Below are positions 8,541 through 14,035 of a stretch of DNA of 64,000 bases, piece after piece (position 1 is the stretch's first letter; each line of letters opens with the position of its first letter). The DNA comes from Arabidopsis thaliana (Eukaryota > Streptophyta > Magnoliopsida > Brassicales > Brassicaceae), in assembly GCF_000001735.4 (NCBI RefSeq), contig NC_003076.8:1674001-1738000 (forward strand), read 5' to 3'. The translations under genes were made by a program, and so were the position numbers. Under the pieces are notes generated by a model. That model did no database searches. It saw nothing but the letters and a program-made list of their open reading frames with translations, and was not told the origin of the DNA.

Positions 8541-10013
8541 ATGACTGAGCTTAGCTCTCCGAATCTTGACTCCGCCTCGCAGAAGCCAAGAATCTCCACC
8601 GAAAACCCTCCTCCTCCTCCTCCTCACATAAGCATTGGTGTCACCACCGGTGACCCTGCTACGTCTCCGGCGAGAACCGTCAACCAAATCAAGAAAATAA
8701 CGGTACTGCCACTAGTTTTCCTGATATTCTACGAGGTCTCAGGCGGTCCGTTTGGGATTGAGGATAGTGTGAAAGCAGCAGGACCATTGTTAGCCATTGT
8801 TGGATTCATCGTCTTCCCTTTTATATGGAGTATCCCTGAAGCACTCATCACTGCTGAGATGGGAACAATGTTCCCGGAGAACGGTGGTTACGTCGTGTGG
8901 GTCACTTTAGCTATGGGACCTTATTGGGGGTTTCAACAAGGTTGGGTTAAATGGCTAAGTGGCGTTATAGACAACGCTCTTTATCCGATTCTCTTCCTTG
9001 ACTATCTCAAATCAGGAATCCCGATACTCGGTAGTGGGATCCCTCGAGTCGCTGCGATTCTGGTGTTGACTGTAGCCTTGACTTACTTGAACTACAGGGG
9101 TTTAAGCATTGTTGGTGTAGCAGCTGTTCTTCTCGGCGTTTTCTCCATCCTTCCGTTTGTGGTGATGTCTTTCATGTCGATTCCAAAGCTTAAACCTTCG
9201 AGATGGCTTGTGGTTAGCAAGAAGATGAAAGGTGTTAACTGGAGCTTGTATCTCAATACACTCTTCTGGAATCTCAACTATTGGGATTCAGTTAGTACGC
9301 TTACGGGTGAAGTTGAAAACCCGAGTAAAACATTACCAAGAGCTCTGTTTTATGCTCTGCTTCTTGTTGTGTTTTCTTACATCTTCCCGGTTTTGACCGG
9401 GACAGGAGCTATAGCTCTTGATCAGAAGCTATGGACTGACGGGTATTTCGCTGATATCGGTAAAGTTATAGGAGGAGTTTGGTTGGGATGGTGGATTCAA
9501 GCTGCAGCTGCGACATCTAACATGGGAATGTTTTTGGCTGAAATGAGCAGTGATTCTTTTCAGCTACTTGGAATGGCTGAGAGGGGGATGCTTCCCGAGG
9601 TCTTTGCCAAGAGATCGCGCTACAGAACTCCATGGGTCGGGATACTGTTCTCGGCCTCTGGTGTGATTATCTTGTCATGGTTAAGCTTTCAAGAGATTGT
9701 GGCTGCAGAGAATCTGTTATACTGTTTTGGAATGGTTTTGGAATTTATTACGTTTGTGAGGTTAAGGATGAAATATCCAGCTGCCTCAAGACCGTTCAAG
9801 ATACCTGTAGGGGTTTTGGGATCAGTCCTCATGTGCATTCCTCCAACAGTACTGATCGGTGTCATCATGGCATTTACTAACCTGAAAGTTGCGCTGGTGA
9901 GCCTTGCAGCTATAGTGATTGGGCTTGTGTTGCAACCTTGTCTTAAGCAAGTGGAGAAAAAGGGATGGCTCAAGTTCTCAACAAGTTCTCACCTACCAAA
10001 CCTGATGGAGTAA
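8541..10013 (+). CDS. RMV1: Polyamine/paraquat transporter RMV1 (PUT3, LAT1; AT5G05630-like)
   Basis: An uninterrupted 490-codon ORF encodes an amino acid-polyamine-organocation (APC) superfamily protein of the LAT type. A Pro-rich cytosolic N-tail (ENPPPPPPH) precedes about 12 hydrophobic helices, starting [20 protein letters not shown] near residue 53. The conserved [14 protein letters not shown] segment is the substrate/ion site of helix 1 in this family. The plant proteins import spermine, spermidine and paraquat with protons at the plasma membrane. Residue 377 (codon 9669-9671, ATC) is Ile. As I recall, a natural Ile-to-Phe change there in another accession gives paraquat tolerance, so this copy should be the ordinary, sensitive allele. 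It is intronless, as I recall for this gene, and no frameshift is seen. Confidence 0.95.
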
Positions 10014-10605
10014 AGACCACCGAAGATGGTGATGCTTTTGGTTTTACTTTTGATCTTACAGGTAATGATCATTGCTTCTGGATTTTGGATCAGAACTTAA
10101 AAGCTTATTCTATGCCTTACTAGATGAAGACTTTTCTTTTCAATGGATTTTGGATTTCTTTGATTTTTCATTATACAGTAACTTACACCGCATGGGAGAC
10201 ATTTCTGATCATAGAAAAAGGACAAAATTACTTGCTATATTTCGCCATCTTACACAATCCTCTTAGAGTTTTAGTCGATTCATTGACAACAAGGGATAGT
10301 CTACGTACAAGAAAGAAAAGGAAACAACAACAACAAAACAAGAAGAAGAAACAGTGAACACACAAGCTTATGTTAGTATGTTACAGATAGTATATATAAT
10401 TTTTTTCGTCTATCCAAAATTCTCCTAATTAATAACACTAATGTTTATGACTTATGAGTCTATCACTTAACACTAATTACGTTTTTAACCCTTTGTAACC
10501 CTAATTGGCTCCTGCTTCATGTTGTATATAACTGCTCTCAGAAACCTAAGTCGTCACTCCCTCTCCCTTGGTTCTTTCTTCCTCTTGAAAGCTAGAAAGA
10601 AGAAA
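10014..10605. other. RMV1 3' flank and promoter of the nucleocapsid-like gene
   Basis: The left half is probable RMV1 3' UTR. A TATATAA box at 10525-10531 sits about 75 bp before ATG 10606, and a pyrimidine-rich stretch (cactccctctcccttggttc) follows it. This suggests a normal polymerase II promoter for the downstream ORF. It also argues against the in-frame ATG at 10519, which lies upstream of the TATA box. Confidence 0.55.
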
Positions 10606-11577
10606 ATGGAAGAAGCTCTTAGCGAAGCTCTTAGCAGCTTTGACTTCGATGAACTTGTAGCTTCGCTTGCTGATGCCATCGCAGCAACATCGACTCCCAA
10701 GCCTTTGGTGGAATTTTCACTACATGCTTTGATGGCTGAATTGTTTAAGAGAACTAAAACCTTACCCAAAGCTGAAGTCAGCAGGACATTCTTCAGAGCT
10801 GTTTCCATTGGCTTGCTGAGAGGTAACATTAGGAAAGATCAACTGGAGAGAACTTGTGATGCTGGTAAAGCAATTATCAAAAGAGTTGCTGCAATTCTAG
10901 GGATTGAAATCAGAGACAAGGGTCAAAGAAAGCTTGTTCTAACAAACAAAACTGTGACTTTCTCAAGAATGATAGCTATTTTCCCTCACTGGGCTAGCCA
11001 GCTAATGGTCTCTAAGGAGAGCCTTTTTGTCAACAGGTTTGCTTCTTTCAATGATGCCAATAGATTTCCTGCTCAAACTCATAAGCTTCCTATTGCTATG
11101 CTTCACTCTGGATTTGCTGGTCTGATTCCAAGAGAAAGTGATGATATGGAATTCATAGACCTTATTTGCATGTGTCACTCTGCTTTCATGGCTGAGTTCT
11201 CTCTTCTGATTACTCCTCAAGAACAGAGAAGTTTTCATGCATTGTACGAGAATCAGAAAAGATATACCGAGGCTGCTCGTGGATCTGGATTCAATTCTGA
11301 TGAAAATAGGATCGTTTATCTTTTGAGATTTGGGTTGTTGTCTTCTGATAGTCTTGATAAGATGTTGAAAGTTGCTGCAAGGGTTTCAACTTTGAGTGCA
11401 AGGCAAGAAGAAGCAAGTGTTACAAGAGACAGCTTTACGATCGTTGAAGATCGGGTCAAGATCGTAAATGATGATGCAAAGTGGGATGAGCTATTGAAAA
11501 AAGCCAAGAGAATAGTTGATGCTTCAAGTTCAATGAGGTCTCAGGTTGCTGCTGTTGACTCCTTAGATGGAGTTTGA
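10606..11577 (+). CDS. Nucleocapsid-like protein, probable endogenous viral element (AT5G05640-like)
   Basis: An intact, intronless ORF of 323 codons begins MEEALSEALSSFDF. I recall the reference locus carrying a nucleoprotein-like label. The central and C-terminal pattern is that of the Tenuivirus/Phlebovirus nucleocapsid family (Pfam Tenui_N): a Met/Leu-x-His-Ser-Gly-Phe-Ala-Gly-Leu core near residue 165-175, a helix with CHSAFMAEFSLLITP around 190-205, and a RIVYLLRFGLL segment around 240. The N-terminal third holds basic residues (LLRGNIRKDQLER, IIKRV). No polymerase or glycoprotein ORF is nearby. It has its own TATA box and no stop or frameshift, which suggests selection for a host role, perhaps RNA binding. 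Start 10606 is chosen because the upstream ATG precedes the TATA box. The viral-family link is by pattern, not search. Confidence 0.7.
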   Translation: MEEALSEALSSFDFDELVASLADAIAATSTPKPLVEFSLHALMAELFKRTKTLPKAEVSRTFFRAVSIGLLRGNIRKDQLERTCDAGKAIIKRVAAILGIEIRDKGQRKLVLTNKTVTFSRMIAIFPHWASQLMVSKESLFVNRFASFNDANRFPAQTHKLPIAMLHSGFAGLIPRESDDMEFIDLICMCHSAFMAEFSLLITPQEQRSFHALYENQKRYTEAARGSGFNSDENRIVYLLRFGLLSSDSLDKMLKVAARVSTLSARQEEASVTRDSFTIVEDRVKIVNDDAKWDELLKKAKRIVDASSSMRSQVAAVDSLDGV

Positions 11578-11664
11578 TTTAGTGCTTTATTGAGCTTCTT
11601 TCTTTTGTTTCGTTTGATCTGTTCTTAAGTATAGACTTTCTAGTCTTTCTTTTAAGTTTCTTTA

Positions 11665-11820
11665 GCTATTGCCATTTCCTTGCTGAGAGGTAACATAAGG
11701 AAAGATCAATTGGAGAGAACTAGTGATAAAGCAACTCTCAAAAGAGTTACTGCAACTCTTGGGATTGTAATCAGAGACAAGGGTCAAAAAAAGATTGTTC
11801 TAACTAACAAAACTGTGACC
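11665..11820 (+). pseudogene. Broken second copy of the nucleocapsid-like gene, internal segment
   Basis: About 155 bases repeat the intact gene at 10801-10960: the stretch encoding LLRGNIRKDQLER through VLTNKTVT, with a 6-base in-frame deletion and scattered substitutions. It begins directly where the 3' flank of the intact copy ends, so the two were in tandem. After 11820 similarity stops abruptly. The rest of the copy, apart from its tail at 13885, is missing. Confidence 0.85.
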
Positions 11821-11860
11821 ATTGATCCATTTTATGTTTGTAGAATGAGAAGAGGCAACA

Positions 11861-13649
11861 TTATACCCATGGAGGATTTCTTGGCACTTGCTCCATCTCC
11901 TCACCTCCACACAATCTATTCAGCTTCTTGACCAGGGCCTCTTCATCAGATTCGTCTTCACACCCGAAATACCTTTCCTGTCAATACATTTGCAGCTGAA
12001 ATTGTAAGAAAATGTGTTTTATAACTTTTAAGCTGAAGAACAAACGGACAAAGCATAACATCAACTCACAGGATAAGAAAAAGCTTCAGAAGTAACTTTG
12101 AGGAGGACTAAAGGCTCATTGTGTACTCCATGCATCTTTGTAGAGGGAGTAAAAGTGGCTTTTTGATCATTAAATAAGACACAACCCATTTGAGATTAAA
12201 TAAGAAGGAACAATTTGCATGTAGAGATTTCAGCGAACAAATACAATTCTCTAGATATAAACAAATGCATAGGATATACTTAAAAGAAATGAGATTATTT
12301 ATATCACAATAATTACCATCTTCAAACTTGGTTATCACCCATTCTCTCAAATTAGATAAAAAGTTGTTATAAAATTGAAGCTATGTATCCCATAAGCAAA
12401 AGAAGACGAAGCTGTGATTTTCCGGTTAATCAGCAGAATCTGAGTTAAAACCGAAAAGAAAACAGTTTAACAAGAAAGAATTTATCTTCTCTCATATCAG
12501 AGGAGTTTGCGTTTAACAACAAGATGCATCATCACAAGTCACAAGATACATCAAAAGATACATGAGACTTCATATACTTAGTAGATAACCCTAACTTAAT
12601 TAGGAAAATCAAGCAGAGACAAACACATCCACCGATCTCCGCCTCTCGAGGAAAGAGAACGCCACCAACCCCCTGAATCGAAATCTTACCGTCGGTGTAA
12701 ATGTCAGGATCGTACAAACACCCTGACCAGACACCGTCACCAAACTTAATAGAACGTTGAGTTTCCCTAGCCGAAAGCATATGTGGGAAGTAAAATGTAT
12801 CAAACTTTATCATCCCAGATCTTCTAACACAAGCATAAAAACTCTTCTCAGTCTGATACTCAGGGATAATGTGGTAATACCAAATTTGTTTCTCACTCAG
12901 CTGATCCATCGTGAATCTCGCTATAGCTTCGTCGTCCGGAGCAAGAACCGTTGTCGAATGATGCTTTTTCTATGCAAAATCAAAATATTGTTTTAGTGAG
13001 CTAGGGCACAAATTAACTCATCAGCATCATCATATTTATGAGAACACTAAAATAAGAGGTTTTAAGCACGAAATGACTACTTTTCTAATTAATTATATTT
13101 GAAAAAGTGACTAATTTTTAACTTATTTCATTTTAAATCTCTAGCTATTTTTAGTTATATATTAGATAAGAAAATAAAAGAGAAATGAGAATGAAAAAAA
13201 TATACATTTACACTAAAAATTCGCATAACCAAAGGATAAACTAGGGAGGGATTATTGGTTTATTGATTTATAAGGAATTGAAAATCCAAACAAAAATCAT
13301 TTGTTATTCAATCATTGATTTTAAAATTCTAATTAAAAATCATGTGTTATTGATTCGATGATTTATAAAATACTAGTTAAATCCTTTGTTATTCGTTTAG
13401 TCATTTGTTTTTGGATTTGAGAATCCAAATTATGTTTTAAATGGAATTGAATGGATTTGAAAGAGAAAAATATAAGGATTCAAATTCATGGGTAAACACA
13501 TGTTATTTCAAAATCTATATATTTTGATTTCATAATTAATAGAGATTTTCAAATTCTATATAGATTTACAAATCAATAAACCAAAAACACCCCTAACATT
13601 AGTAAAATGAATCATAAAATTGTACCATTGCTCCTGCACTGGTAGACAT
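11861..13649 (-). CDS. Putative multi-exon gene of unknown function, reconstructed
   Basis: I do not recognise this protein. Phase-compatible minus-strand exons can be chained: 13626-13649 (tentative first exon, MSTSAGAM), an exon starting at 12969 (KKHHSTTVLAPDDEAIARFT, IWYYHIIPEYQ, SFYACVRRSGMI) and running to about 12600, then 12317-12380 (LQFYNNFLSNLREWVITKFE), 12070-12158 (KMHGVHNEPLVLLKV) and 11861-11977 (ERYFGCEDESDEEALVKKLN to PPWV, stop). The last three have good donors and acceptors and join in frame. The donor of the 12969 exon is uncertain; its open frame ends at 12532, so it may be a separate or damaged gene. The first intron would contain the MITE at 13244. The whole unit lies between the two pieces of the broken nucleocapsid copy. 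Its codon use looks coding. Confidence 0.45.
13244..13593. mobile_element. PIF/Harbinger (Tourist-like) MITE
   Basis: The ends are inverted: GGGAGGGATTATTGGTTTAT on the left, and GGGGTGTTTTTGGTTTATTG as reverse complement of the right, with the match running on through TTGATTTrTAA. The flanks are CTA and TAA, compatible with a degraded 3-bp TWA target duplication, or with a 2-bp TA. It is 350 bp and non-coding, built of repeated ATTGATTT and TGTTATT words. Terminus type and size fit Tourist-like elements. Family assignment below superfamily level was not possible. Confidence 0.6.
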
Positions 13650-13884
13650 GATACAGTTTCGACTTTTTGAGTCATAATGCATTCCAAATTTTAACAATGA
13701 TTGACAACACTAACTTATGGTGACAACCACCAAACTAAAGTTAGTAATAGATTACATGAAAAGTCCCCATATATCATTATTTGACTACAGCTTTCTTCGA
13801 AATTCATTTCAACTTTAGTGGACATTTATTCTTTTTTGAATAAAATGTTAAATTATATTTAAAAGAAAATAATTTTTTTACATC

Positions 13885-14035
13885 AATAGTTGATGCTTCA
13901 ACTTCAATGAGGTCTCAGTTGCTGCCGTTGGTTGACTCAGATGGAGTTTGATTTAATGATTTTGCTCCCTTTAACCTCTTTTTCGTTTCATCTGTTTTTA
14001 AGTTTAGACCTTCTTTATTAACTCGTTTCTTTAAC
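13885..14035 (+). pseudogene. Tail of the broken nucleocapsid-like copy
   Basis: This repeats 11511-11655 of the intact gene: the last roughly 20 codons (IVDASTSMRSQ, DGV), the TGA and the following CT-rich 3' flank, with small indels. In the coding part the duplicate has lost one G and gained bases, so it is out of frame. Together with 11665-11820 it is the remains of one tandem duplicate, now split by about 2 kb of other sequence. Confidence 0.8.

What the first reader, a model, noticed from the sequence alone, without database searches (positions are those of the whole stretch)
10606..11577. Intact nucleocapsid-like ORF from a negative-strand RNA virus in a plant chromosome
A 323-codon ORF without stops or introns carries the motif order of the Tenuivirus/Phlebovirus nucleocapsid family. 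It has its own TATA box and lies alone, with no other viral gene. An intact frame next to a decayed duplicate of itself implies that one copy has been kept by selection. A captured RNA-binding protein could act in antiviral interference or RNA handling. The family link is my pattern reading; the frame, TATA box and duplicate are seen directly.
Basis: partly seen in the sequence, partly recalled or inferred. Interest (0 to 1): 0.8.

Follow-up and report, generated by a model that had tools for sequence, protein, structure and literature searches.

The report
Captured plant-virus nucleocapsid gene in Arabidopsis
An Arabidopsis chromosome carries a still-intact copy of the RNA-coat gene of an ancient plant RNA virus related to apple rubbery wood virus; close relatives seem to carry broken copies, so whether the plant still uses it is open.

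The parts
10606..11577 (+). intact ORF, 323 aa, endogenous rubodvirus-like nucleocapsid (copy A)
10612..10635 (+). 12-bp tandem duplication (four codons, frame kept) near the start of copy A; the A. lyrata and A. arenosa protein models have one unit
   Evidence: sequence printed; protein alignment
10525..10531 (+). TATA-like motif upstream of copy A; not above background
11664..11823 (+). decayed tandem duplicate (copy B), piece matching residues 65-119 of copy A
13885..14014 (+). decayed duplicate (copy B), piece matching the last residues and the 3' untranslated stretch of copy A
11819..13831 (.). DNA in place of the middle of copy B: pieces 77-91% like G000:C5:1928.8-1933.5 kb (minus strand), with a dispersed repeat and other matches between them
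13239..13600 (.). dispersed repeat of about 360 bp: 12 other places at 87-96% identity over 270 bp or more; 22-nt inverted repeats near its ends (MITE-like), inside the replaced part of copy B

Best explanation
The ORF is an endogenous viral element: the nucleocapsid (N) gene of a negative-strand RNA virus of plants, nearest to genus Rubodvirus (Phenuiviridae), copied into DNA and inserted beside an amino-acid-permease-family gene in an ancestor of Arabidopsis, Capsella and Camelina. It was duplicated in tandem, probably around or before the split of A. thaliana from A. lyrata. The duplicate then lost its 5' fifth and had its middle replaced by about 2 kb of other DNA. The A. thaliana copy still reads open and would fold as an N protein with a groove for single-stranded RNA. 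Most likely it was under some constraint for part of its history and is now at most weakly kept. Any remaining activity would be RNA binding or interference with the assembly of related viruses' ribonucleoprotein. Shown: ORF, family, predicted fold, duplicate. Read from protein models only: broken relatives. Inferred: reverse transcription by a host retroelement, single insertion in Brassicaceae, age, loss of constraint, RNA binding.
Against: Integration mechanism and RNA binding were not tested; no target-site duplication or poly-A was sought. The model is of middling confidence (pLDDT 68). The rubodvirus link rests on a structure search; no viral N sequence was compared directly, and viruses of fungi rank third and fourth and a cogu-like virus second in the same list. 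No nucleotide sequence of any relative was available. Only 3 of the 13 other proteins pass the Tenui_N cut-off (P0002, P0007, P0009), and four (P0008, P0012, P0013, P0014) do not match it at E 1. Synteny of the relatives was not tested.
Confidence: 0.75

Rival explanations
1. Domesticated antiviral factor: copy A is expressed, is under purifying selection in A. thaliana, and poisons ribonucleoprotein assembly of incoming rubodvirus- or coguvirus-like viruses, or serves as an RNA-binding protein of the host.
For: Open frame in A. thaliana although neutral drift at 0.065 substitutions per site leaves only 13% of simulated frames free of stops, before counting indels. Capsella model covers 89% of the query at 80% identity. 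Capsella identity of 234 of 298 aligned residues is higher than the 0.68 expected under neutrality at the A-B distance of 0.17. Two full-length models in poppy (P0007; P0012).
Against: Shifted frame in A. lyrata and A. arenosa models; Camelina and A. suecica models lack the N half. Copy A is significantly slower than its relatives in 0 of 6 rate tests. Copy A has changed residues that the five other Brassicaceae models covering the place share (GFNSDENRI where they read IPDEDRI). No expression data.
Confidence: 0.25
2. Neutral relic: the ORF has had no function since integration and is open by luck.
For: dN/dS of A against B 0.68, not different from 1 (p 0.57, 53 codons); no significant rate difference from broken relatives; broken relatives.
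Against: Neutral simulation of substitutions alone gives 13% frames without stop at d 0.065 and 2% at 0.12; the A-B alignments show 6 indels beside 34 substitutions (my count; three of the indels lie in the untranslated stretch), which would make survival rarer still. Branch lengths of 0.065 and more are recalled, not measured here.
Confidence: 0.25
3. An old plant gene that viruses captured, i.e. transfer from host to virus.
For: None beyond the presence in plants.
Against: Three searches of about 5.8 billion proteins found only Arabidopsis, Capsella, Camelina, poppy and one unnamed contig (these searches need shared 5-residue words and one scored a capped candidate list), while the fold is that of a whole virus family.
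Confidence: 0.03

Closest known systems
[quoted passage not shown]
   Same: Best structural match among predicted viral proteins, 26-32% identity in those alignments. Rubodvirus NPs of grapevine are 284 and 288 aa, carry the Tenui_N domain and are the only gene of RNA 3 (PMC6724010, section 3.2 read; other passages), so capture of N alone is natural.
   Different: Sits in a plant chromosome; 323 aa; about as far from rubodviruses (26-32%) as from poppy copies (35% for P0007).
Endogenous rhabdovirus nucleocapsid-like sequences of plants (RNLS, Chiba 2011, PMC3136472)
   Same: N gene of a plant negative-strand RNA virus in chromosomes of several plants, Brassicaceae included (abstract and passages seen).
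   Different: Those come from cytorhabdo- and varicosaviruses; the main text has no word starting with bunya or phlebo.
Phlebovirus/bandavirus nucleocapsids of the PDB (4j4w, 4j4x, 4csf, 3lyf)
   Same: Same fold over residues about 27-266.
   Different: 15-22% identity; the plant protein has a C-terminal stretch beyond residue 266 that these matches do not cover.
Opium poppy proteins P0007, P0008, P0009, P0012, P0013
   Same: Same family, 25-35% identical to the ORF in the alignment; two full-length models.
   Different: Separated by a distance like that to the viruses, so a separate capture is more likely than one shared event (inference).

Membership tests
Pfam Tenui_N (PF05733) | score above curated cut-off of 25 bits | tested here: met
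   32 bits, E 1.2e-7
Phenuiviridae nucleocapsid | nucleocapsid fold | tested here: met
Phenuiviridae nucleocapsid | basic residues of the RNA groove | tested here: inconclusive
   In the alignment to 4j4w two of three basic positions are R72 and R82 and the third is I75; which three matter is recalled. PMC6724010 reports two of three in rubodviruses.
Phenuiviridae nucleocapsid | oligomerisation and binding of single-stranded RNA | not testable with these tools
   needs protein
Rubodvirus-derived | nearest viral relative is a rubodvirus N | tested here: met
   rows 1, 5 and 24 of the 50 shown are rubodviruses, row 2 cogu-like, rows 3-4 viruses of fungi; by structure search only, no sequence tree made
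Rubodvirus-derived | viral segment termini present | not tested
   none looked for
Endogenous viral element | in the chromosome with host flanks and shared by related species | tested here: met
   permease-family ORF ends 592 bp upstream; contig of 26,975,502 bases; models in A. lyrata, A. arenosa, Capsella, Camelina; synteny and fixation not tested
Domesticated (exapted) viral gene | purifying selection | tested here: inconclusive
   searches point both ways
Domesticated (exapted) viral gene | expression and host function | not testable with these tools
   no RNA data

The most novel reading that the evidence does not exclude
A plant has domesticated a rubodvirus nucleocapsid: the A. thaliana copy is kept as a dominant-negative restriction factor against bunyavirus-like plant viruses, and poppies captured the same gene independently, so N capture would be a recurrent antiviral route in plants.
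Probability: 0.15. Interest if true: 0.85.

Novelty: new member of a known kind. Interest (0 to 1): 0.5.

Why it matters
It is a fossil of an infection by a plant virus group described only from about 2018 on (Rott 2018 and Wright 2018 as cited in passages of PMC7524893), in the best-studied plant genome, where mutants, natural variants and expression atlases can test whether a captured nucleocapsid is used. If the copies are orthologous, it also shows that viruses near rubodviruses infected herbaceous Brassicaceae before Arabidopsis and Capsella parted.

Tried and rejected

Rows dropped: P0001 (same as the ORF) and P0004 and P0006 (gene models that skip parts) were left out of the alignment for the second fold (12 rows). 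P0001, P0004, P0008, P0009, P0013 and P0014 took no part in the alignments; of the nine rate tests there, six involve copy A against a relative and are reported, the other three (A. arenosa against copy B twice, p 0.059 and 0.257; Capsella against Camelina, p 0.433) do not bear on it.

Full report
What is there. The window holds an ORF of 323 codons at 10606-11577 on the plus strand. The longest ATG ORF in 30 random 64-kb sequences with the window's dinucleotide frequencies averaged 125 codons and never passed 195. The protein has a calculated mass of 36.1 kDa and a pI of 8.4. The window is G000 contig 5, 1674001-1738000, of a 119.66-Mb genome in 7 contigs, and the contig is 26,975,502 bases long. 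That fits chromosome 5 of Arabidopsis thaliana; the match of that length is recalled. I recall the locus as At5g05640; no paper in the library holds that name. The neighbour at 8541-10013 is an amino-acid permease family protein; I recall it as a polyamine transporter.

Relatives. Three protein searches returned 14 different proteins: the ORF itself (P0001), seven models from other Brassicaceae (Capsella P0002, A. suecica P0003, A. lyrata P0004, P0006 and P0011, Camelina P0005, and P0010 from an A. thaliana x A. arenosa record, taken as the A. arenosa copy from its locus tag), five from opium poppy (P0007, P0008, P0009, P0012, P0013) and one from an unnamed 1201-base contig (P0014). One database source already calls the A. 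suecica protein 'Nucleocapsid Phlebovirus/Tenuivirus'. Only 3 of the 13 others pass the Tenui_N cut-off: P0002, P0007 and P0009. P0007 and the ORF are 35% identical, about as alike as the ORF and apple rubbery wood virus 1 in the structural alignment. I infer two captures from related viruses rather than one that is older than the split of poppies from other eudicots; no tree was made.

State of the relatives. The last residues of P0010 and P0011, and the same stretch of P0006 before its predicted splice, read like the +1 frame of copy A, and P0010 and P0011 end where that frame meets a stop. So A. lyrata and A. arenosa copies appear to share a frameshift. P0004 jumps the same place. P0003 and P0005 lack the N-terminal half. 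P0002 of Capsella covers 89% of the query, from about residue 36 to the end, and is labelled partial. None of the seven is a plain full-length copy. These are gene models; I had no DNA of these species.

The duplicate. Copy B consists of 11664-11819 (86% of 162 columns) and 13885-14014 (81% of 134 columns). The first fifth of the gene is missing. In place of the middle lies DNA resembling in pieces (77-91%) a stretch about 245 kb away on the same contig, and a MITE-like repeat of about 360 bp with 22-nt inverted repeats near its ends. On 53 codons A and B differ with dS 0.17, dN 0.12, ratio 0.68 (p 0.57 by Fisher's test). With Capsella as outgroup, 2 sites join copy B to the A. arenosa model, 2 to each A. 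lyrata model, while 1, 1 and 0 join it to copy A. The A. suecica model reads on past the usual end into FNDFAPF, which copy B's 3' stretch also encodes and copy A's does not; the next residues, however, look like copy A's. This hints that the duplication is older than the split of these species and that the known relatives are of the copy B kind, but it rests on few sites.

Selection. For: neutral substitution of 0.065 per site leaves 13% of simulated frames free of stops, 0.12 leaves 2% and 0.17 leaves 0.3%, and indels come on top. The Capsella protein is identical at 234 of 298 aligned residues (87 of 121 and 147 of 177), more than the 0.68 expected at the A-B distance of 0.17, if the Capsella split is at least as old as the duplication. 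Against: in six comparisons with an outgroup the intact copy has 4, 15, 15, 14, 6 and 5 private changes and the relatives (copy B, two A. lyrata models, A. arenosa, A. suecica twice) 6, 10, 15, 7, 8 and 9; none is significant (lowest p 0.13). The intact copy thus has fewer changes in three, equal in one and more in two. It has also lost residues that the five other Brassicaceae models covering the place share (GFNSDENRI for IPDEDRI). I read this as constraint in the past that has weakened. The branch lengths used to weigh the simulation, and its mutation bias, are recalled, not measured.

How it would work. By established knowledge a phenuivirus N binds single-stranded RNA in a basic groove and links into chains. 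In the alignment to 4j4w two of three basic groove positions stay basic (R72, R82) and one is I75 (choice of positions recalled). A cellular N could insert into a related virus's ribonucleoprotein and spoil it, or its transcript could feed small RNAs. Neither is tested.

Known or new. Endogenous nucleocapsid genes of plant rhabdoviruses were described in 2011 (PMC3136472, abstract and passages seen), and that text has no word starting with bunya or phlebo. Searches showed no title or abstract start that reports a rubodvirus-like element in plants; most listed papers were not opened.

Noticed in passing
proteins P0007, P0008, P0009, P0012, P0013: Opium poppy holds members of the same nucleocapsid family on four different chromosome-size contigs, two as full-length models (P0007, P0012); P0009 and P0013, on one contig with neighbouring locus numbers, look like two halves of one broken copy.
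   Followed up: partly
protein P0014: A 342-aa relative on a 1201-base unnamed contig, 47% identical to poppy P0007 and 29% to the ORF; its size would fit a viral RNA 3 or a transcript of an endogenous copy. Its source could not be reached.
   Followed up: partly
window 11819-13831: About 2 kb inside the duplicate is a patchwork resembling G000:C5:1.9289-1.9335 Mb, where the ORF L011:2517-3212 looks like an NDR1/HIN1-like protein (recalled, not searched).
   Followed up: partly
window 13239-13600: MITE-like repeat, about 360 bp, with 12 other places at 87-96% identity over 270 bp or more on contigs C1-C5.
   Followed up: no
window 10606-11577: The N-terminal half differs more than the C-terminal half between A. 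thaliana and Capsella (72% against 83% identity) and between two poppy proteins (55% against 66%).
   Followed up: no
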